DNA from: Streptomyces sp. NRRL F-5630
Lineage (GTDB): Bacteria; Actinomycetota; Actinomycetes; Streptomycetales; Streptomycetaceae
Direction of reading: 5' to 3'
Assembly: GCF_000719475.1 (NCBI RefSeq)
Contig: NZ_JOGO01000106.1
Location: forward strand, 1-14,299
DNA: 14,299 bases
The notes beneath the pieces were generated by a model, which saw only the letters and a list, made by a program, of their open reading frames with translations, was not told the DNA's origin and did no database searches. Made by a program: the position numbers and the translations under genes. How positions within the stretch are numbered: position 1 is the stretch's first letter; each line of letters begins with the position of its first letter. Shown here piece after piece: positions 1,923 through 10,728 of the stretch.

Positions 1923-3032
1923 TCACGCCGCCAGCGTCCCCGGGACGACCGCCCCCGCGCCGAAGCGCCGCCGCGCGCGGTCGGCCGCCGCCTCCAGGCG
2001 GTGCGCCTTGTCGTCCTCGGGGTCCAGGCTGAGCTGGTGGGCGGCCCCGGCGGCGGGCCGCAGGCCCTCGGCGCGCAGCACGAGCCCCCGCACCCGGGCG
2101 CGTTGCAGGCCGAGCGCCTCGTGCAGGCCGTACGCGGCGGCGGTGAGCGCCCGTGTGTGGGCGCTGGGCTCGGGCAGCGCGCGGGAGCGCACGGTGGTGG
2201 AGCGGTCGGCGTAGCGGACGGTGAGCTGGAGGCTCGCGCACACCTGCTCCTCGGCCCGCAGCCGGGTGCCGAGTTCCTCGGTGAGTGAGAGCAGGGCGCG
2301 GCGTTGGCGGTCGCGGTCGAGTTCGTCGCGGTCGAAGGCGCGGTGCGCGGAGAGGGCGCGGGAGAGCGCGTCGGGGGTGACGGGGGTGGGGTCGATGCCG
2401 TGCGCGCGGGCGCGCAGTTCGCGTCCGGCGCGGGCGCCGAGGATGCGCTGGAGGGTGCCGAGCGGGGCGGCGGCGACGCGTCCGGCGGAGTCGAGTCCGT
2501 AGGAGCAGAGCGTACGGGCGGTGGCGGGGCCCACGCCCGGCAGCGCGATGACGGGCTTGCGGTCGAGGTAGGCGGCGAGCCCGTCCTCGGTGACGGTGAC
2601 GGTCGCGCCGAAGCGGGCCTCGCGCGCGGCCATGCGGGCGATGAGCGGGGTGGGGCCCACGCCGATCGCGCACACGACACCGTGCAGGGCGAGGGTCCGC
2701 ACCCGTACGAGCGCGGCGAGTTCGGCGACGTCGCGCCCGAAGTAGCGGCGCGCGCCGCGCACGTCGGCGAGCGCGGTGTCGGGCGGGAGCGCCTGGACGA
2801 GCGGGGTGAGCCCTTCGACGGTGGCGAGCAGCGCGGGCAGCAGGTCGGGCGCGCCGGGCTCGCGCGAGAGCCGGAAGCGCACGCAGAGGACACCGGCGCC
2901 GGATCCCTCCCCCGTCCCCCCGGCCGCGCTTTCCGCACCACCGGTCGCGTCTTCCCCGTACGGGCCCGGGGCTTCGCCCGCCCTCTCCCCGTACGGGTCC
3001 GCGCCCTCCCCGTACCGTGCCGGGCCGCTCAT
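1923..3032 (-). CDS. Degenerate Y-family DNA polymerase-like protein (ImuB/DinB2-like)
   Basis: The protein has 369 residues. A Gly/Pro-rich N-terminal stretch (1-46) precedes a shortened palm/fingers region, a thumb helix-hairpin-helix (VIALPGVGPATARTL, 161-175; HGIDPTPV, 211-218) and a little-finger domain (about 225-335). The two catalytic acidic sites look lost: the usual VDMD of motif I reads VRFR (51-54), and DEAFLDVTG reads DTALADVRG (85-93), with Glu replaced by Thr. It keeps QLSLD (333-337), which resembles a beta-clamp binding motif. This pattern fits a non-catalytic, ImuB-like partner that brings DnaE2 to the clamp. The ATG at 3032 overlaps the dnaE2 stop (ATGA) and is preceded by AGGGGAG. 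A start at 3059 is possible but less likely. Some databases would call it DinB or UmuC-like. Confidence 0.82.
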   Translation of the reverse strand: MSGPARYGEGADPYGERAGEAPGPYGEDATGGAESAAGGTGEGSGAGVLCVRFRLSREPGAPDLLPALLATVEGLTPLVQALPPDTALADVRGARRYFGRDVAELAALVRVRTLALHGVVCAIGVGPTPLIARMAAREARFGATVTVTEDGLAAYLDRKPVIALPGVGPATARTLCSYGLDSAGRVAAAPLGTLQRILGARAGRELRARAHGIDPTPVTPDALSRALSAHRAFDRDELDRDRQRRALLSLTEELGTRLRAEEQVCASLQLTVRYADRSTTVRSRALPEPSAHTRALTAAAYGLHEALGLQRARVRGLVLRAEGLRPAAGAAHQLSLDPEDDKAHRLEAAADRARRRFGAGAVVPGTLAA

Positions 3033-6000
3033 CCCGCGCTCCCCTGGCTCTGGTGCCACAGCTTCGCCCGCGCGATCCCGCGGCCCGTCGCCGCCGTGTC
3101 CGCGCCCGCCGGTTTGAGATCGGCCCAGGGGTTGAGCGCGAAACCGGTGGGGAGGGTGATGCGGCGCGCGGCCGAGGCCGGTTCCGCGGGCTGCTCCTCC
3201 AGGGGTTCGGCGAGCTTCGCCGCGACCGCTTCGAGGCCGCCCTCGGCGCGCAGGTCGAGGAGTTCGGCGAGGTTCCAGGCGACGGTGCCGACGACGCTGA
3301 GGCTGCGCGGCCCGCGCCGCTGCACGGTGCCGCGCACGAGGAGCAGCCAGGAGTGGAAGACGGTGTGGGCGCAGCGCTCGTGCGAGTCGTCGAAGAAGGC
3401 GAGGTCGACGAGTCCGGTGCCGTCGTCGAGGGTCGTGAAGACGACGCGTTTGCCGGAGCGGATGGGCGGGGTCTGGGTCGCGGCCTTGGCGCCGGCGACG
3501 AGGACGGTCGCGCCGTGCGGGGCCTCGCGCAGGCGGCGCGCGGAAACGACGCCGAGTTCGCGCAGGAACTCCTGGTGGTCGCCCATGAGATGGCGGGACG
3601 CGTCCATGCCGAGGACGCCGAGTTCGGCGCTGAGCCGTTCGGTCTCGTCGAGGTCGGGGAGCCCGGCGGGCGCGGTGCGGCGACCGCCGGAGAGCGGGAG
3701 CTGGGTGCCGTGCGAGGCGGCACCCCTGCCCATGCGGTGGAGTTCGGCGAGGTGGAGGAGGAGGTCGCGGCGGTTGGCGCCGAAGGCGTCGAGCGCGCCG
3801 ACCTGCGCGAGGCGTTCGGCGACGGGCCGCGAGGGCCGCGCGCGCTCCCAGAAGTCGAGGAGCGAGGTGTACGGCTGCGCGGCGGCGATCCGCTCGCCCT
3901 CGGCCTCGCTCATGCCGTGCACGTCGGCGAGCCCGAGGCGGACACCCCAGCGGGCCGCCGGAGGCTCGTCATCGGACACCAGTTCGATGCGATGGGCCGG
4001 GGCGGAGTGGTTCACGTCCACGGGCAGGATCGGTACGCCCCTGCGCCGCGCGTCCGCGAGGAGCAGCCGCTTGGGGTACATGCCGGGGTCGTGGGTGAGC
4101 AGCCCGGCGTAGAAGGCGGCCGGGTGGTGGGCCTTGAGCCAGGCGGACTGGTAGGTGGGCACGGCGAAGGCGACGGCGTGCGCCTTGCAGAAGCCGTACG
4201 AGCCGAACGCCTCGACGATCTCCCACGTGCGCGTGACGGTCTCGGCGTCGTAGCCGCGTTCGGCGGCGCGCTGCGCGAACCAGAAGCGGATGCGGCCCTG
4301 CGACTCGGGGTCGGAGAGCCCGCGCCGCACCCGGTCGGCCTCGTCGCGCCCGCAGCCGGTCATGGTGTGCACGAGGTCGATGACCTGCTCGTGGAAGACG
4401 ACGACGCCGTAGGTGTCCGCGAGGGCGGGGGCGAGGTCGGGGTGCGGGTAGCGCGCGGGGGCGCGGCCGTGCCGGGCCTCGATGAAGGGCCGCACCATGT
4501 CGGCGGCGACGGGCCCCGGGCGGAAGAGTGAGATGTCCACGACGAGGTCGTGGAAGGTGGACGGCTGGAGCCTCCCGACGAGGTCGCGCTGGCCGGGCGA
4601 CTCGATCTGGAAGCAGCCGAGGGTCTCGGTGGAGCGGATGAGCTGGTACGTCCTCTCGTCGCCTGGCGGGAGCGCGTCGATGTCGGGCGCCTCGCCGGTG
4701 GCCCGGTCCAGTTCGGAGAGGGCGTGCGCCATCGCGGACTGCATCCGCACCCCGAGGACGTCGAGCTTGAGCAGCCCGAGGTCCTCGACGTCCTCCTTGT
4801 CGAACTGCGCCATCGGCAGCGACTCGCCGCTCGTGGGCACGACGGGGGTGCGCGAGAGCAGCGAGGCGTCCGAGAGGAGCACCCCGCACGGGTGCATCGC
4901 GACGCCGCGCGGGAGCGCGTCGAGCCCTTCGACCAGTTCCCAGAAGGTCCCGTACTTCTCGCGCTCGGCGGCGACGGAGGCGAGTTCGGGCAGTTCGTCC
5001 ATCGCGGTGCGGGCGTCGCGGGCGCGAATGTGCGGGAAGGCGGTGGCGATGCGGTCGATGTCGGCGGGGTCGAGCGAGAGCGCGGCGCCGACGTCGCGGA
5101 TCGCGTGCCGCACGCGGTACGTCTCGGGCATCGCGACGGTCGCGACGCGCTCGGGCCCGAAGCGGCCGAGGATCGCGCGGTAGACCTCGATGCGGCGCGC
5201 GGACTCGACGTCGATGTCGATGTCGGGCAGCACGGAGCGCCGCTTGGACAGGAAGCGCTCCATGAGCAGCCCGTGCTCCAGCGGGTCGGCGTGCGCGATG
5301 CCGAGGAGGTGGTTGACGAGGGAGCCCGCGCCCGAGCCGCGCGCGGCGACGCGGATGCCGAGGTCGCGCACGTCGTCGACGACGCGGGCGACGGTGAGGA
5401 AGTACGAGGCGAAGTCGTGGTGCCCGATGATGTCCAGCTCGTGGTGCATCCGCTCCCAGTACGCGCGCGCCTTCGGGCCCCGGTCGTAGCCGTGCCGGAC
5501 CATCCCGGCGGCGGCGCGCGAGGCGAGGGCGCGCTGCGCGGTGCGCCGGCCGGCGCCGACGAGACGCGGTTCGGGGAAGCGCACGGAGCCGAGGCCGAGG
5601 TCGTCCTCGGGGTCGACGAGGCACTCCGCCGCGGTACGGGCCGTGTGGGCGAGGAGCGCGGCGGCGGCCTGCGGGCCGAAGCCCGCGGCGGTCGTGATCC
5701 GTTCGGCCTCGGCGGCCATGCGCCCGGCGTCCTTGAGCCAGCGCTCGCCGCTGTCGAGGCCCTTGGCGGGGTCGATGGGAACGAGGCGGCGGGCCGCGTC
5801 GAGCACGTCGGCGATGCGGCCCTGGCCCGGGTCGGCGTAGCGCACCGCGTTGGTGAGCACGGGGCGTACGCCTTGCTCGGCGGCGAAGCCGACGGTGCGG
5901 GCGGCGAGGCGCAGGGAGCCGGGTCCCGTACCGGCGCGTCCGTGGTGGACGGCTTCGAGGCGCAGCGCGTCGCCGTAGCGCTCGCGCCAGGGGGCGAGGA

Positions 6001-6523
6001 GGCGGGCCGCGCGGTCGGGGCGCCCGGCGGCGAGGGCGCGGCCGATGTCGGACTCGGGGCCGAGCAGGACGGTGAGCCCTTCGCCGGGGTGGGCGTCCCA
6101 GGGCAGCAGCGGCGGGCGCTCGCCGCGGGCGTGGGCGGCGGTCACCAGCGCGCACAGGGAGGCCCAGCCGCGCGCGCCGTCGCGGGCGAGGAAGGTCACC
6201 CGCGGCGCGGACTCGTCGAGGAAGGCCCCGCCCCGTACGGGAGCGCGCCGCCGCCCGCCGCCGCGCGTGTCCCGCGTGGCGGGTACGTCCACGGCGAGAT
6301 CGACCCCGAACAGGGGCCGCACGCCTTCCTCGGCGCACGCCTTGGCGAAGCGCACGGCTCCGGCGAGGGTGTCGCGGTCGGTGAGCGCGACGGCGTCCAT
6401 GCCCCGCTCCGCGGCCCGTGCGGCGAGCGCCTCGGGATGCGAGGCGCCGTACCGCGCCGAGTTGCCGGAGACGGTGCGCAGATGCGCGAAACCGAGACCC
6501 GAAAGGCCCGGAGACCTGGTCAT
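3029..6523 (-). CDS. dnaE2: Error-prone DNA polymerase III alpha-type subunit DnaE2
   Basis: This 1164-residue C-family polymerase is the usual DnaE2 size and lacks the long C-terminal tau-binding region of DnaE1. The order is PHP domain (about 10-80), palm with catalytic PDIDID (433-438) and third aspartate in LLKLDVLG (D588), fingers (FQIESPGQR about 638; FGSYGFCKAHAVAFA about 773), HhH region (about 860-915), QLPLSG (941-946, clamp-binding-like) and OB fold (about 1004-1085). The polymerase site is intact. In the PHP domain, expected His ligands are replaced (HLR at 14-16 and TDR at 48-50, where HxH and TDH are usual). The ATG at 6523 is chosen over an upstream GTG at 6529 because GAGGAGG at 6535-6529 is perfectly spaced for it and overlaps the GTG. 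Role: translesion synthesis and induced mutagenesis with the downstream Y-family partner. Confidence 0.95.
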   Translation of the reverse strand: MTRSPGLSGLGFAHLRTVSGNSARYGASHPEALAARAAERGMDAVALTDRDTLAGAVRFAKACAEEGVRPLFGVDLAVDVPATRDTRGGGRRRAPVRGGAFLDESAPRVTFLARDGARGWASLCALVTAAHARGERPPLLPWDAHPGEGLTVLLGPESDIGRALAAGRPDRAARLLAPWRERYGDALRLEAVHHGRAGTGPGSLRLAARTVGFAAEQGVRPVLTNAVRYADPGQGRIADVLDAARRLVPIDPAKGLDSGERWLKDAGRMAAEAERITTAAGFGPQAAAALLAHTARTAAECLVDPEDDLGLGSVRFPEPRLVGAGRRTAQRALASRAAAGMVRHGYDRGPKARAYWERMHHELDIIGHHDFASYFLTVARVVDDVRDLGIRVAARGSGAGSLVNHLLGIAHADPLEHGLLMERFLSKRRSVLPDIDIDVESARRIEVYRAILGRFGPERVATVAMPETYRVRHAIRDVGAALSLDPADIDRIATAFPHIRARDARTAMDELPELASVAAEREKYGTFWELVEGLDALPRGVAMHPCGVLLSDASLLSRTPVVPTSGESLPMAQFDKEDVEDLGLLKLDVLGVRMQSAMAHALSELDRATGEAPDIDALPPGDERTYQLIRSTETLGCFQIESPGQRDLVGRLQPSTFHDLVVDISLFRPGPVAADMVRPFIEARHGRAPARYPHPDLAPALADTYGVVVFHEQVIDLVHTMTGCGRDEADRVRRGLSDPESQGRIRFWFAQRAAERGYDAETVTRTWEIVEAFGSYGFCKAHAVAFAVPTYQSAWLKAHHPAAFYAGLLTHDPGMYPKRLLLADARRRGVPILPVDVNHSAPAHRIELVSDDEPPAARWGVRLGLADVHGMSEAEGERIAAAQPYTSLLDFWERARPSRPVAERLAQVGALDAFGANRRDLLLHLAELHRMGRGAASHGTQLPLSGGRRTAPAGLPDLDETERLSAELGVLGMDASRHLMGDHQEFLRELGVVSARRLREAPHGATVLVAGAKAATQTPPIRSGKRVVFTTLDDGTGLVDLAFFDDSHERCAHTVFHSWLLLVRGTVQRRGPRSLSVVGTVAWNLAELLDLRAEGGLEAVAAKLAEPLEEQPAEPASAARRITLPTGFALNPWADLKPAGADTAATGRGIARAKLWHQSQGSAG

Positions 6524-6590
6524 CCGCACCTCCTCGGACGCTCGTGCTCACCCCCTGGTTCATCTCTCGGGCACCACGATAAACCACGTC

Positions 6591-6745: not shown

Positions 6746-7828
6746 TCAGCCGATCTCGGCGCCGAAGGCGTCCAGCGCCTCCGTGACCGGCTGGAAGAAG
6801 GTCTCGCCGCCGGAGGTGCAGTCGCCGCTGCCGCCCGAGGTGAGGCCGATCGCGTTGCTGCCCGCGAAGAGCGAGCCGCCCGAGTCGCCGGGCTCGGCGC
6901 AGACCGTGGTCTGGATGAGCCCGTCCACGATGCCGTCCGCGCCGTAGTTGACGCTCACGTCGAGGCCGGTCACCTCGCCGCTGTGGACGCCGCTGGTGGA
7001 GCCGGAGCGGGTGACGGCCTGGCCGACCGTCGCGTCGGCGGCCCCGCTGATCGACTGGCTGGTGCCGTCGTAGAGGTCGACCTCGCTCGGGTGGGGGGTG
7101 TTCCCGCTGTACTTCACGAGCCCGTAGTCGTTGCCGGGGAACTCGGAGCCCGCGTTGCTGCCGAGCGGGTTGCCGTCCGCGTCGCTCCAGCTGCTGATCG
7201 CCTCGGTGCAGTGCCCGGCGGTGAGGAAGGCGGGCTCGCCGCCGACCGTCACGTTGAAGCCGAGCGAGCAGCGCCCGCCGGAGCCCTCGATCGCGTCGCC
7301 GCCCGCGATGAGGGGCTTGAAGGTGCCCTTGGACTGCTTGAGCGTCGCCGCGGTGCCGAGCTTCTCGACGGCGGTGGTCAGCTTCTTGAGCTGGGCGCCC
7401 TTGACGGTGCGGTCGGCGGTCACGACGACCTTGTTGGAGACCGGGTCCACGCCCCAGGAGGTGCCGGGTATCGCGGTGGTCTCCTTGGCGACGGCGGAGC
7501 GCGCCGACTTCAGCTCGGCGAGCGTGTGCGCGACGACTCTGGCCTTCGCGCCCGCCGCCTCGGCCGTCTTCGCGGCCGACTGGTCCGTCACGTTGACGAC
7601 GAGGTGCTTGGCCTGCGCGTCGTAGTAGGTTCCCGCCGCGTGCGCGCCCAGGTCCTGGGTGAGTCGCGAGGCGAGCTTTTCGGCCTTCGGCGCCGAGAGG
7701 GTGTGCGGGGCGGTGGGGGGCGCCTCGGCGGCGTTCGCGGTCTGGAAGGTGAATCCGGCCGCGAGCAGCGCGGCCACTCCGGTGCCCGCGATCGCGGCAC
7801 GTCGCACGGTGGTCCGTCGTTCGGTCAC
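6746..7828 (-). CDS. sprD: Secreted S1-family serine protease precursor, streptogrisin D-like
   Basis: The protein has 360 residues and is a secreted, alpha-lytic-type serine endopeptidase. A signal peptide (1-33) has Arg-rich start, hydrophobic core and ANA|A cleavage. A pro-region (about 34-173) includes the alpha-lytic pro-domain segment [14 protein letters not shown]. The mature enzyme starts at IAGGDAI (174). The catalytic triad is H206 (LTAGHC), D234 (NDYGLV) and S316 (GDSGGS). Two disulfides are expected: C187-C207 and C310-C337. The mature part closely resembles streptogrisin D (IAGGDAI start, [15 protein letters not shown] end) as I remember it. The GTG at 7828 is chosen because GGAGG sits 7 nt upstream and the signal peptide starts there; the longer frame upstream does not look like protein. 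The pro-domain acts as a folding chaperone and inhibitor in this family. Confidence 0.9.
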
Positions 7829-8292
7829 TTCACGTCCTCCTGTGGGGGGTTGGTCCCTGCGGTGTGGGGGTGCCGGGACCGGAAGGCGTTCACACACGGT
7901 GTCGCCGGACGGGAAAAGCTGTGTCCGTGTCACCGTGCGCCGCCCACTATTCCGACGGCCTGCAGTCGCACACAAGGTCGATATTCGGCCGCGCGCACGG
8001 AAGGAACGGACGCCTCCGCACCGACCCCGCCCGGCTGTCAAGTACGCCTTCGCGCGAGGGGGTTCGCAGGCGTAAAGCCCCGGTCGGAGCGGTACGGCGC
8101 CAGCCGCGCGCCTCCCTCGGCCTCGTGGCCGGTTCTCGACCCTGGCTCCTCACGGGCCACCGCGACCGCGCGAAGGCCCGGTGAAGGAGTCGCGGACGGG
8201 ACCGGGACCTCGCGTGACGGGCCGGTCACATGCCCGCGCCCGCGCCGGAAAAGCGATGGCCCCCTCCCCCGCGCCCCGTTACCGTGCCGGAC
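7829..8292. other. 464-bp intergenic region between divergent sprD-like gene and thrS leader
   Basis: I see no convincing gene here. The sprD-proximal half is less GC-rich and has a promoter candidate at 7946-7975. The motif CACGGTG occurs near 7895 (plus) and 7935 (minus strand reading). The stretch 8043-8074 can fold weakly through TACGCC/GGCGTA. The thrS promoter should lie at the right end; the best -10 I can offer is TACCGT at 8280-8285, with no good -35. Confidence 0.5.
7946..7975 (-). promoter_or_regulatory. Candidate promoter of the sprD-like protease gene
   Basis: On the minus strand TTGTGT (7975-7970) and AATAGT (7951-7946) are spaced by 18 bp. Transcription from it would start near 7939 and leave a 5' leader of about 110 nt. 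Assigned by eye and moderately weak. Confidence 0.35.
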
Positions 8293-8352
8293 ATGCAGCC
8301 CGCCGCGCACCACCAGGGGACGACGACGCCGGAGTACGTCCCGGCGCGCTGA
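8293..8352 (+). CDS. Threonine leader peptide of thrS attenuator
   Basis: A 19-codon ORF reads MQPAAHHQGTTTPEYVPAR and then TGA. Three consecutive threonine codons (ACG at 8320-8328) lie before a downstream terminator hairpin and a threonyl-tRNA synthetase gene. A ribosome slowed at these codons by lack of charged tRNA-Thr would leave 8337-8344 free to pair with the terminator's left arm. A ribosome reaching the TGA at 8350 would cover that segment. No Shine-Dalgarno sequence precedes the ATG. A possible -10 (TACCGT, 8280-8285) would place the transcript start within 1-2 nt of it, so it may be translated from a leaderless mRNA. An in-frame GTG at 8284 is an alternative start. This is inference from sequence layout; no known homologue is claimed. 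Confidence 0.6.
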   Translation: MQPAAHHQGTTTPEYVPAR

Positions 8353-8381
8353 GAGCTGTACCGAAGCGAAGCCCCGGGGCG
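8337..8381 (+). promoter_or_regulatory. Candidate antiterminator structure of thrS attenuator
   Basis: CGTCCCGG (8337-8344) can pair with CCGGGGCG (8374-8381) over 8 bp, including one G-U pair. This uses up the 5' arm of the terminator hairpin at 8369-8396. The left strand starts 8 nt after the last Thr codon, so it would be exposed by a ribosome stalled at the first Thr codons and masked by one at the leader stop. Found by eye; folding energies not computed. Confidence 0.4.
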
Positions 8382-8398
8382 GGTGCCCCGGGGCTTTT
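8369..8398 (+). terminator. Attenuator (intrinsic terminator) in thrS leader
   Basis: AAGCCCCGGGGC (8369-8380) pairs perfectly with GCCCCGGGGCTT (8385-8396) around a GGGT loop, and the transcript ends in a UUUU run (8395-8398). It stands 16 nt after the leader-peptide stop and 38 nt before the thrS start. It therefore terminates inside the leader rather than at a gene end, as expected for an attenuator. It is the only hairpin in the window with a T-run, which adds weight. Confidence 0.8.
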
Positions 8399-8436
8399 CC
8401 GCGTCGCCACCCGCTCCCCGTCCCGCAGGAGCGACC

Positions 8437-9657
8437 ATGAACGACCCCACCACCGCCCGCGCACACGACCACCACCGCCTCGGCCGTGTGCTCGGCCTCT
8501 ACGGCACCGACCCCCTGCTCGGCGCGGGCCTCCCGTACCTGCTCCCCGACGGCGCGAGCGTGCGGCACGCGCTGGAGGAGTACGTACGCGGCCTGGAGGT
8601 GGCCGACGGCTACCAGCACGTGCACTCGCCGGTGCTCGGGAAACAGGAGCTGTACGTCCGCTCGGGACACTGGGCGCACTACCGCGCGGACATGTTCCCG
8701 CCGATGGAGGTCGGCGGCGAGCACTTCGTCCTGCGCCCCAGCCTGTGCCCGCACCACGCGCTCATCTACCGCTCCCAGGCCCGCAGCTACCGCGAGCTGC
8801 CGCTGCGTCTCGCCGAGTTGGGCGGCATGTTCCGCGCGGAACCCTCCGGGACCCTCGGCGGCCTGACCCGGGTGCGGGCGATCCACCTCAACGACGCGCA
8901 CCTGTTCTGCGCCCCGGAGTCGCTCGCCGAGGAGGTCGCCGGGGCGCTCGCCCTGATCCGTACCGCCTACCGGACCCTCGGCCTGACCCCGAGCCGCTAC
9001 CGGCTCTCGCTGCCGGGCGAGGGCGCCTCGTACGCGCTCGACGGGGGGTGGGAGCGGTCGGCCGCGGCGCTCACCGAGGCGCTCGCGGCCTCGGGGCTCG
9101 ACTGGGAGGAGGGGCGCGGCGAGGCGGCGTTCTACGGACCGAAGATCGACGTGCAGGCGCGGGACGCGGCGGGACGCGAGTTCACCCTCTCGACCGTGCA
9201 GGCCGATTTCCATCAGCCGGCCGCCTTCGGTCTCGACTACCGCGCCGCCGACGGCTCCCGGCCGCGCCCCGTGATGGTGCACCGCAGCGTGCTCGGCAGC
9301 CTGGAGCGCGTCCTCGCGCGGCTGATCGAGGTGCACCGCGGCGCCTTCCCCGCCTGGCTCGCGCCCGTGCAGGTGGGCGTGGTGCCGGTGGGCGAGGAGC
9401 AGGAGGAGGCCGCGGAGTCCTTCGTACGGCGCTGCCGCGCGGCGGGGCTGCGGGCGCGGAGGTACCCGGCGCACGCGGGGACCCTCGCGGCGCGCGTCCG
9501 GCAGGCGCGCCTCGTCCCGCACCTCGCAGTGCTCGGCGCGCGCGAGGCGGCGGCGGGCGAGGTGGCGCTGCGCCGCAGGGACGGCGCACGGCTCCCGGCC
9601 CGCCCCGAGGCGGAGGCGGTGGCGCTGCTCGTGGCGGGGAGCGGGGTGCCGGAGTAG
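8437..9657 (+). CDS. thrS: Short auxiliary threonyl-tRNA synthetase (no TGS or editing domain)
   Basis: A 406-residue class II synthetase: the catalytic core spans about 8-300 and the anticodon-binding domain about 305-400 (PAWLAPVQVGVVPV). Canonical bacterial ThrRS is about 640-660 residues; the N-terminal TGS and Ser-tRNA editing domains are missing. All three zinc ligands that recognise threonine are present (C104 in LCPHH, H155 in NDAHLFC, H282 in VMVHRS), as are motif 2 Arg R133 (FRAEPSG), YGPKID (233-238) and motif 3 GSLER (287-291). This supports true Thr activation. Compared from memory with the E. coli enzyme, pocket positions differ: KPMNCPGH is RPSLCPHH, FTQDDAH is IHLNDAH, and L489/L493 align with Q260/F264. 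The ATG at 8437 has AGGAG 7 nt upstream. It sits behind a Thr-codon leader and terminator. It is likely a second, starvation- or inhibitor-induced ThrRS. Confidence 0.88.
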   Translation: MNDPTTARAHDHHRLGRVLGLYGTDPLLGAGLPYLLPDGASVRHALEEYVRGLEVADGYQHVHSPVLGKQELYVRSGHWAHYRADMFPPMEVGGEHFVLRPSLCPHHALIYRSQARSYRELPLRLAELGGMFRAEPSGTLGGLTRVRAIHLNDAHLFCAPESLAEEVAGALALIRTAYRTLGLTPSRYRLSLPGEGASYALDGGWERSAAALTEALAASGLDWEEGRGEAAFYGPKIDVQARDAAGREFTLSTVQADFHQPAAFGLDYRAADGSRPRPVMVHRSVLGSLERVLARLIEVHRGAFPAWLAPVQVGVVPVGEEQEEAAESFVRRCRAAGLRARRYPAHAGTLAARVRQARLVPHLAVLGAREAAAGEVALRRRDGARLPARPEAEAVALLVAGSGVPE

Positions 9658-9828: not shown

Positions 9829-10728
9829 TCAGTAGACGCTGACCCCGTAGGCGCTGAGCGCCTCGGTCACCGGCTGGAAGAAGGTCGTACCGCCCGAGGA
9901 GCAGTCGCCGCTGCCGCCGGAGGTGAGACCGATCGCCTTGTTGCCGGAGTAGAGCGGGCCGCCGGAGTCGCCGGGCTCGGCGCACACGTTGGTGCGGATG
10001 AGACCGCTGACGATGCCGTCCGCGCCGTAGTTGACGGTGGCGTTGAGGGCGGAGACCGTGCCGCTGTGGATGCCGGTGGTCGAGCCGCGCCGGGTCACGC
10101 TCATGCCGACCGTCGCGTCGGCGGCGCTCGTGATGTCCACGCTGCCCACGGTGCCGTCCTTGGCCACCGAGGAGTTGGTGTACTGCACGAGGCCGTAGTC
10201 GTTGCCGGGGAAGCTGGACCCGACGGTGGTGCCGAGCGTGGTGGAGTGCGAGGAGTTCGACCACCACGTGCCCGCGCCGTCGGTGCAGTGCCCGGCGGTG
10301 AGGAAGTAGTAGGTGCTGCCGCTCCTGACGTTGAAGCCGAGCGAGCAGCGCCAGGACGAGGCGTAGATGGCGTCGCCGCCGGAGATGAGCTTGCTGAACG
10401 TGCCGGGGGTGCGCTCGATCTCCAGGGCGCCCGCGTTGCTCCCGGCCGCGTCCTTGATCTTCTGGATCTCGGCCTGCGAGACGGTGCTGTCCACGGTGAC
10501 CTGGACCTTGCCGTTGCTCGGGTCGATGTTCCACGCCGTGCCGGCGACATCGGCGTCGAGCACGGCGTCGCTCGCGGCGGTGAGCTGGTTGGCGGAGTAC
10601 GTCTTCGCCTCGCCGGCCTGCGCGGCGGGGACGGCGAAGGCTGCGGTGGCGAGGAGGCCGGAGGCCACGGCGATCAGCCGGGTCCGTCTCGTGGTGCCGG
10701 TGCGGGGGGTGGTGCGCTTGGTCCTCAC
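9829..10728 (-). CDS. sprB: Streptogrisin B precursor (secreted serine protease)
   Basis: The protein has 299 residues, the known length of the streptogrisin B precursor. A signal peptide (1-38, ending AQA|G) is followed by a short alpha-lytic-type pro-domain (39-114). The mature chymotrypsin-fold protease begins at ISGGDAIY (115) and has 185 residues. The triad is H147 (LTAGHC), D177 (NDYGLV) and S255 (GDSGGP). Cysteines C128/C148 and C249/C276 should form the two disulfides. The end, SAYGVSVY, matches S. griseus protease B as I remember it. Expected activity is cleavage after large hydrophobic residues outside the cell. The GTG at 10728 has GGAGG 6 nt upstream (10739-10735). The adjacent sprD-like enzyme is a paralogue with a longer pro-region. 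Confidence 0.94.

What the first reader, a model, noticed from the sequence alone, without database searches (positions are those of the whole stretch)
8293..8398. Threonine-codon leader plus terminator: likely ribosome-mediated attenuator of an auxiliary ThrRS
Seen: a 19-codon ORF with three consecutive ACG codons, a segment (8337-8344) able to pair with the 5' arm of a terminator, a perfect 12-bp terminator ending in UUUU, and then a ThrRS gene. The amino acid in the run matches the enzyme. Known: Streptomyces controls an auxiliary tryptophanyl-tRNA synthetase by Trp-codon attenuation, and trp/leu/ilv leaders exist in actinobacteria. I am not aware of a Thr-specific attenuator for thrS in this group, where enteric thrS is controlled by translational autorepression and many Firmicutes use T-boxes. 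Inferred: low charged tRNA-Thr turns the gene on.
Basis: partly seen in the sequence, partly recalled or inferred. Interest (0 to 1): 0.88.

Follow-up and report, generated by a model that had tools for sequence, protein, structure and literature searches.

The report
Threonine-sensing leader of spare ThrRS gene
A short stretch of RNA in front of a spare threonyl-tRNA synthetase gene of soil actinobacteria appears to sense, through a stalling ribosome, when charged threonine tRNA runs out and then to switch the gene on; a simple form was already reported in one species, but an extra paired segment that may also control translation was not found described.

Summary
In detail: leader ORF 8293-8352 (MQPAAHHQGTTTPEYVPAR*), an antiterminator-like segment, a 12-bp hairpin and a short ThrRS gene. 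It is not chance. 89 of 90 same-genus loci examined carry the leader before the auxiliary thrS; a covariance model finds it strongly in 60 of 394 genomes of the class, 59 before thrS and one at a contig end. (1) A thrL leader before thrS was already listed for S. lividans in 2021 (PMC8079986). (2) The U-tract is found in the window and few relatives (TTTT in 6 of 131), so termination is uncertain elsewhere. (3) The promoter resembles the WblC/WhiB7 type and places the transcription start at the leader ATG. (4) A further layer was missed: the hairpin loop covaries with a segment just upstream of the Shine-Dalgarno, which also pairs with the Shine-Dalgarno region. This suggests output at translation, perhaps besides termination. 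Ribosome-masked folding supports the antiterminator before the hairpin is complete; equilibrium folding does not show release of the Shine-Dalgarno site. Response to threonine is untested.

The parts
8248..8253 (+). GAAAAG, WblC/WhiB7-like promoter box (published consensus GAAAWY; 5 of 6 positions)
   Evidence: sequence; consensus from passages of PMC7157823; relaxed WblC-type promoter in 102 of 142 loci, shuffled mean 1.3, max 5; strict in 52 of 142, shuffled mean 0.07, max 1; the window matches the relaxed form only
8257..8262 (+). TGGCCC, putative -35 (published TKGMNN), 3 nt after the box
   Evidence: PMC7157823 passages
8280..8285 (+). TACCGT, -10 (TANNNT), 17-nt spacer, ending 7 nt before the leader ATG: predicted leaderless start
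   Evidence: (7 nt in 121 of 143 loci, 6 nt in 21, 5 nt in 1)
8293..8352 (+). Leader ORF MQPAAHHQGTTTPEYVPAR*
   Evidence: conserved Thr run and stop
8320..8328 (+). Three Thr codons ACG ACG ACG (control codons)
8328..8332 (+). Segment 1 (GCCGG), pairs with 8341-8345
   Evidence: never varies in 79 rows; 99.6% of cells paired in 135 rows
8338..8344 (+). Segment 2 (GTCCCGG), pairs with segment 3 CCGGGGC 8374-8380 (antiterminator)
8368..8397 (+). Hairpin 3:4 (terminator-like), arms 8368-8380 and 8385-8397, loop GGGT; T at 8395-8398
8377..8385 (+). Element L (end of 5' arm, loop, first base of 3' arm), pairs with A 8408-8416 (9 pairs, one G-U)
   Evidence: for the window; family:
8408..8416 (+). 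Element A (CACCCGCTC): alternative partner of L and, shifted, of the Shine-Dalgarno region (8412-8417 with 8428-8433)
8427..8431 (+). Shine-Dalgarno AGGAG of thrS, inside the A:SD hairpin
8437..9657 (+). Auxiliary (short) threonyl-tRNA synthetase, 406 aa, without TGS/editing domains

Best explanation
A leaderless mRNA starts at the leader ATG from a WblC/WhiB7-like promoter. A ribosome translates the 19-codon leader while RNA polymerase goes on. With enough Thr-tRNA it runs to the stop, covers segment 2, and hairpin 3:4 forms (OFF). With too little Thr-tRNA it stalls at the ACG run, covers segment 1, frees segment 2 to pair with 3, and hairpin 3:4 is prevented (ON). Hairpin 3:4 may act as a terminator where a T run exists, as in the window. 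In the family at large it probably acts also, or mainly, on translation: with 3:4 formed, element A is free to pair with the Shine-Dalgarno region, while without 3:4 the loop element L can pair with A instead. Shown by sequence comparison: conservation of leader, promoter and helices, and covariation of 3:4, L:A and A:SD. Inferred: stalling, termination, release of the Shine-Dalgarno site, response to threonine starvation.
For: Leader in 89 of 90 same-genus loci fetched by the ThrRS protein. Covariance model: 60 of 394 class genomes at E <= 5.2e-6, one such hit each, 59 before thrS and one at a contig end. Thr run to segment 2 is 18 nt in 129 of 131 and 17 in 2, so a ribosome stalled at Thr leaves segment 2 free. 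Before segment 4 is made, mean P(2:3) = 0.99 with a ribosome on Thr1-3 and 0.17 without. Where the frame shifts after the Thr run (L006, L105) the end of the peptide changes but the helices stay, which argues for RNA/ribosome control rather than a nascent-peptide arrest. L:A covariation, all 135 rows: 92.5% of cells paired against 86.2% shuffled (max 87.6), 50 both-side changes against 12.8 (max 20); on a tree of 79 ThrRS, 11 pair-to-pair double changes against 0-1 in six slid controls; A:SD 9 against 0-3. RNAalifold chose L:A unprompted, on the 79 selected rows. thrS2 is listed as WblC-activated in S. coelicolor (Table 1 of PMC7157823, section read); a leaderless thrL is reported in S. lividans (PMC8079986, passages).
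Against: At equilibrium hairpin 3:4 wins in every ribosome state (mean P 0.97-0.98) and the Shine-Dalgarno stays mostly paired (unpaired 0.22-0.24), so the switch must be kinetic. Forcing 2:3 (130 of 131 rows) raises L:A only to 0.35 and does not open the Shine-Dalgarno (0.22 against 0.23 free). Only 6 of 131 have TTTT near the stem end, and 1 of 131 has 4 T in the 6 nt after the stem. The 6-nt core of L:A is fully paired in 91 of 131, not in 40, and 26 branches break L:A pairs, 74 A:SD pairs and 35 hairpin pairs. Helices 1:2 and 2:3 hardly vary, so covariation cannot test them. L007 keeps the hairpin but has no leader. The orthology of the window gene with the S. lividans and S. coelicolor genes was not tested with their sequences.
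Confidence: 0.77

Rival explanations
1. Classical transcription attenuation only: 2:3 against 3:4 decides termination; L:A and A:SD have no role of their own.
For: Attenuator geometry; window hairpin ends in TTTT; the same kind of control is known for an auxiliary TrpRS of Streptomyces (recalled).
Against: TTTT in few relatives; several loci have hairpins of 7-10 bp and no T run above 1, and of the 9 loci with T run 1, 6 keep the L:A core; L:A and A:SD covary.
Confidence: 0.25
2. Translational attenuation only: the hairpin does not terminate, and the leader ribosome sets whether the Shine-Dalgarno of thrS is paired with A.
For: A:SD and L:A covariation (selected rows); own A:SD best-helix score 2061 against 1955 with partners swapped among loci (max 2019); weak or absent U-tract; the S. 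lividans report notes no U-rich stretch.
Against: Folding does not show release of the Shine-Dalgarno in the 2:3 state; the strong hairpin and the 2:3 geometry look made for termination; the window has TTTT.
Confidence: 0.3
3. L pairs with A while hairpin 3:4 stays closed, as an H-type pseudoknot, so that L:A serves the OFF hairpin or mRNA stability rather than the ON state.
For: The loop is the covarying part of L; the linker between hairpin and A is often about 13 nt by eye.
Against: A 4-nt loop is tight for this (general knowledge); linker length varies; RNAalifold prefers an opened hairpin, though it cannot predict pseudoknots.
Confidence: 0.15
4. The leader senses ribosome-targeting antibiotics or general starvation, as described for the wblC leader, not threonine in particular.
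For: WblC-like promoter, WblC activation of thrS2 in S. [quoted passage not shown]
Against: The amino acid of the conserved codon run matches the enzyme, in the window and in the leaders before full-length thrS (L123, L125).
Confidence: 0.1

Closest known systems
thrL-thrS attenuator of Streptomyces lividans TK24 (PMC8079986; passages read)
   Same: Threonine leader MKRVRPFLETTPGFVPAR* before thrS, leaderless start, one hairpin, no U-rich stretch; same -VPAR* end as most of the window family
   Different: Reported in one species, in a table and a paragraph; the passages read describe no antiterminator for it, no covariation, promoter type or Shine-Dalgarno layer
trpS2 and leuS attenuators of Streptomyces (PMC1262725; abstract and results section read)
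   Same: aaRS gene behind a cognate-codon leader with antiterminator and terminator
   Different: Trp/Leu codons; thrS not among them; no loop:anti-Shine-Dalgarno helix described there for these genes
LEU element of actinobacterial leuA (PMC1262725, results section)
   Same: Leader peptide whose codon run can pair with the Shine-Dalgarno of the gene; alternative structures
   Different: Leucine, biosynthetic gene, pseudoknot model; no sequence relation tested
Auxiliary TrpRS attenuator of Streptomyces (recalled, not read)
   Same: Auxiliary, drug-tolerant aaRS under ribosome-mediated attenuation
   Different: Trp codons; transcriptional as recalled
E. coli thr operon leader (recalled)
   Same: Thr-codon leader and attenuator
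   Different: Biosynthetic operon, mixed Thr/Ile codons, no sequence relation tested
T-box on thrS of Bacillota (PMC12452182, passages)
   Same: Senses tRNA-Thr charging
   Different: Binds tRNA directly; no T-box match in the window

Membership tests
Ribosome-mediated amino-acid attenuator | Short translated ORF with a run of cognate codons before the gene | tested here: met
   Leader with Thr x3 before thrS; 143 of 143 parsed loci with in-frame -10-linked start; translation itself not shown
Ribosome-mediated amino-acid attenuator | Mutually exclusive helices 1:2, 2:3, 3:4 placed so that a stalled ribosome frees segment 2 | tested here: met
   18-nt spacing in 129 of 131; P(2:3) 0.99 stalled against 0.17 unmasked before segment 4; at equilibrium 3:4 wins in all states
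Ribosome-mediated amino-acid attenuator | Covariation in the antiterminator 2:3 | tested here: inconclusive
   Nearly invariant
Ribosome-mediated transcriptional attenuator | Intrinsic terminator with U-tract | tested here: inconclusive
   TTTT in window; TTTT in 6 of 131 loci
Ribosome-mediated amino-acid attenuator | Expression responds to charging of the cognate tRNA | not testable with these tools
   Needs reporters
Translational attenuator | Shine-Dalgarno region of the gene in a hairpin | tested here: met
   A:SD 84.4% of cells paired against 81.1% shuffled (max 82.0), 64 both-side changes against 32.6 (max 45)
Translational attenuator | Stalled state frees the Shine-Dalgarno | tested here: inconclusive
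   L:A covaries but folding with forced 2:3 does not open it
WblC/WhiB7 regulon promoter | GAAAWY 3 nt upstream of -35, 16-19 nt spacer, TANNNT | tested here: inconclusive
   Strict form in 52 of 142 loci, not the window; relaxed form in 102 of 142 incl. the window; shuffled means 0.07 and 1.3
WblC/WhiB7 regulon promoter | WblC binding and dependence at this locus | not testable with these tools
   thrS2 of S. coelicolor listed as WblC-activated; window gene untested
T-box riboswitch | Rfam T-box match | tested here: not met
   No match at gathering threshold in the window and none at E <= 1 in 8200-8480

The most novel reading that the evidence does not exclude
A dual-output attenuator: the loop of the terminator-like hairpin mimics the Shine-Dalgarno flank. 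When the leader ribosome stalls at threonine and the hairpin cannot form, the loop pairs with the anti-Shine-Dalgarno segment and releases the start site, so one stalling event both stops termination and opens translation. It sits behind a WblC-type promoter, giving an AND gate of general ribosome stress and a specific lack of charged tRNA-Thr, and an auxiliary alaS-like gene of the same genome has the same promoter-plus-leader layout.
Probability: 0.42. Interest if true: 0.7.

Novelty: new variant of a known kind. Interest (0 to 1): 0.52.

Why it matters
Backup tRNA synthetases can give actinobacteria tolerance to synthetase-targeting antibiotics (recalled; not tested for this gene). A conserved leader that ties one of them to its own tRNA charge, behind a promoter for general ribosome stress, would explain how the spare enzyme stays silent until needed. 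The loop / anti-Shine-Dalgarno covariation gives concrete, mutually exclusive helices that compensatory mutations can test, and a way to ask whether GC-rich actinobacteria with poor U-tracts use translation rather than termination as the output of attenuators.

Tried and rejected
Rfam at gathering threshold and at E <= 1: nothing credible. General terminator/promoter scan: nothing. T-box: no match. The idea that the leader marks other genes: of the 60 strong model hits 59 precede thrS and one is at a contig end; of nine weaker hits that I read, eight (E 2.8e-4 to 0.006; L226, L227, L229-L234) show no ThrRS by tblastn and look like chance, and one (G746, E 9.8e-4, L123) precedes a full-length thrS; the other weak hits were not read. 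The idea that the main thrS of this genome also has the leader: the model hits the genome only at the window and I saw none in the upstream bases printed. A pattern for a WblC-like or plain -10 plus leaderless small ORF at the own TrpRS/TyrRS-family loci L238 and L239 and at two of three AlaRS-family loci (L235, L236) listed nothing; the third, L237, matched. Equilibrium folding as proof of a switch: failed. The S. clavuligerus 3'-end study (PMC8269248, passages) does not mention thrS in its main text; supplementary files could not be opened. Lopatovskaya 2010 (Mol Biol 44:128) is cited in three papers seen (PMC8269248, PMC10272879, PMC4833913; passages) but was not read; it may already list thrS. 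Literature searches for thrS / threonine leaders; of the papers that I opened, only PMC8079986 reports one, and not every listed paper was opened.

Rows dropped: of 143 parsed loci, 5 gave no ThrRS start by script, 2 no Shine-Dalgarno and 1 was over length, leaving 135; 131 have a hairpin loop of 3-5 nt. A1 holds 79 of 105 non-redundant rows; I left out 26 long or divergent ones by eye, several of which lack L:A. So the A1 percentages, RNAalifold and the 55-tip tree lean towards L:A; one search repeats the test on all 135 rows and a 79-tip tree and is the one to use. Class loci were pre-selected by ACGACGACGCCGG, so Thr-run counts from them are not independent; the same-genus loci were fetched by protein alone but are the closest hits, and my scripts looked for at least two ACN codons. 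One search missed L096, whose leader was then seen by eye.

Full report
What is there. The protein scores over the TIGR00418 cut-off (388.4 against 383.65 bits) and has only the class II core and anticodon-binding domains in Pfam, so it is a short form without TGS and editing domains. The same genome has a full-length thrS elsewhere (G000:C31, 42% identity) with no such leader seen in the sequence read.

Conservation. I searched 392 genomes of the genus with the ThrRS protein (every genome matches because of its main thrS), fetched the upstream DNA of 90 of the best matches, and found the Thr-run leader in 89; L007 keeps the hairpin and Shine-Dalgarno segment but no leader. With class loci found by an ACG pattern and six named loci (Streptoalloteichus, three Nocardia, Actinoplanes, a Streptomyces), 143 loci were parsed. 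All 143 have a TANNNT box 6-7 nt before an in-frame ATG/GTG, none an out-of-frame one. All 85 same-genus rows measured have ACG ACG ACG; two loci of other genera, L221 and L223, begin the run with ACC. The third bases take part in the extension of helix 1:2 chosen by RNAalifold, so ACG may reflect structure rather than a rare tRNA. A covariance model built from the 79 rows of A1 gave 60 of 394 class genomes at E <= 5.2e-6, one such hit each, among them 17 of the 40 same-genus genomes of that draw; 59 are before ThrRS and one (G345) lies at a contig end.

Promoter. Counting back from the leader start, the commonest bases at -46 to -42 are GAAAA. Passages of PMC7157823 give the WblC promoter as GAAAWY, 3 nt, TKGMNN, 16-19 nt, TANNNT, with most starts 7-8 nt further. 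A strict form is met in 52 of 142 loci (shuffled mean 0.07, max 1), a relaxed form in 102 (shuffled mean 1.3, max 5); the window meets only the relaxed form: GAAAAG-CGA-TGGCCC-17 nt-TACCGT-7 nt-ATG. Table 1 of the same paper lists thrS2 among WblC-activated synthetase genes of S. coelicolor (section read). A passage of PMC10771440 names SCO3778 as a threonyl-tRNA synthetase with a sigma-E site found only under ethanol stress. The search listing has SCO3778 once in PMC7157823 but the text read did not show it; that thrS2 is SCO3778, and the orthologue of the window gene, is inference.

Helices. 1:2 (8328-8332 with 8341-8345) and 2:3 (8338-8344 with 8374-8380) are almost invariant: 99.6% and 98.5% of cells paired over 135 rows, with no useful covariation to test them. 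The distance from the Thr run to segment 2 is 18 nt in 129 of 131 and 17 in 2. Where one base is lost between (L006, L105) the frame shifts, the peptide end changes and the helices remain. Hairpin 3:4 shows 25 both-side changes against 5.7 shuffled (max 11), and 7 pair-to-pair double changes on the tree against 0-2 in slid controls. TTTT close to the stem end is found in 6 of 131 loci, 4 T in the 6 nt after the stem in 1 of 131, and 114 of 131 have no T run longer than 2 there.

The end of the 5' arm, the loop and the first base of the 3' arm (L; GGGCGAGTG in most loci, GGGCGGGTG in the window, 8377-8385) are complementary to a segment A (CACTCGCCC in the RNA consensus, CACCCGCTC in the window, 8408-8416) just upstream of the Shine-Dalgarno; A also pairs with the Shine-Dalgarno region. 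RNAalifold, given the 79 selected rows, chose the L:A helix without being told. Over all 135 rows L:A has 92.5% of cells paired against 86.2% shuffled (max 87.6) and 50 both-side changes against 12.8 (max 20); A:SD has 84.4% against 81.1% (max 82.0) and 64 against 32.6 (max 45). On a tree of 79 ThrRS proteins L:A has 11 pair-to-pair double changes against 0-1 in six slid controls, A:SD 9 against 0-3. Against: 26 branches break L:A pairs, 74 A:SD pairs and 35 hairpin pairs; the 6-nt core of L:A is fully paired in 91 of 131 loci, not in 40; the 8-9-bp form in 87 of 131. The earlier, more favourable counts on 79 selected rows left out 26 rows and should not be used alone.

Folding. With a ribosome masking up to 12 nt beyond the first base of the A-site codon on Thr1, 2 or 3, and before segment 4 is made, segment 2 pairs with the segment 3 region with mean probability 0.99; unmasked, 0.17 (131 rows). 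In the full RNA hairpin 3:4 wins in every state (0.97-0.98) and the Shine-Dalgarno is mostly paired in every state (unpaired 0.22-0.24), so any switch must be kinetic. Forcing 2:3 (130 rows) raises L:A from 0.01 to 0.35 but leaves the Shine-Dalgarno at 0.22 unpaired, against 0.23 free. The release step is thus inferred, not modelled.

Mechanism and rivals. The best reading is a ribosome-mediated attenuator sensing tRNA-Thr charge. Whether its output is termination, translation or both is open; the covariation favours a part for translation, the window's T run a part for termination. A pseudoknot reading of L:A and an antibiotic-sensing reading of the leader are less likely but not excluded.

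Prior knowledge. PMC8079986 (passages) reports for S. lividans a leaderless thrL, MKRVRPFLETTPGFVPAR*, before thrS, with one hairpin and no U-rich stretch, among 8 leader peptides. So a threonine leader before thrS is known. PMC1262725 (abstract and results section) found attenuators before trpS2 and leuS in Streptomyces, not thrS. In the papers opened after searches I found no description of the L:A/A:SD layer or of the spread across the class; Lopatovskaya 2010 could not be read. Filed as a new variant of a known kind.

Generalisation. In the same genome an AlaRS-family gene (G000:C7, L237, one of three) is preceded by GAAAAG, a TATCCT box 7 nt before an ATG, and the leader MNVTGRCTTATARAPRSPVAAA*, close to the S. 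lividans AlaL peptide printed in PMC8079986. Two spare synthetase genes thus share the layout of WblC-like promoter plus leaderless cognate leader; that both are under WblC here is inference.

Noticed in passing
L237 (G000:C7, upstream of 176737, minus strand): An auxiliary alaS-like gene of the same genome has a WblC-like promoter and a leaderless leader MNVTGRCTTATARAPRSPVAAA* ending in three Ala.
   Followed up: partly
L123 and L125: In two other genera a Thr x3 leader and a hairpin precede the full-length, TGS-like thrS rather than the short one.
   Followed up: partly
L007: The thrS2 locus keeps hairpin, segment A and Shine-Dalgarno but has no leader peptide: a natural variant.
   Followed up: partly
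L126 (G345:C18, contig end): A complete leader element with no ThrRS start recognised in the 166 bases behind it; the best ThrRS match of that genome is E 1.7e-90, so it may be a relic or an assembly break.
   Followed up: no
L116 and L117: L and A form one long hairpin (GGGCGAACG...CGTTCGCCC in L116) followed by TTT: the L:A helix itself looks terminator-like there.
   Followed up: no
window 6746-8041 (-) and 9829-10728 (-): Two alpha-lytic-protease-like serine protease genes flank thrS2 on the opposite strand.
   Followed up: no
window 1923-3059 (-) and 3029-6529 (-): Y-family polymerase-like (ImuB-type by recall) and DNA polymerase III alpha-like genes side by side, resembling an imuB-dnaE2 mutagenesis pair.
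   Followed up: no
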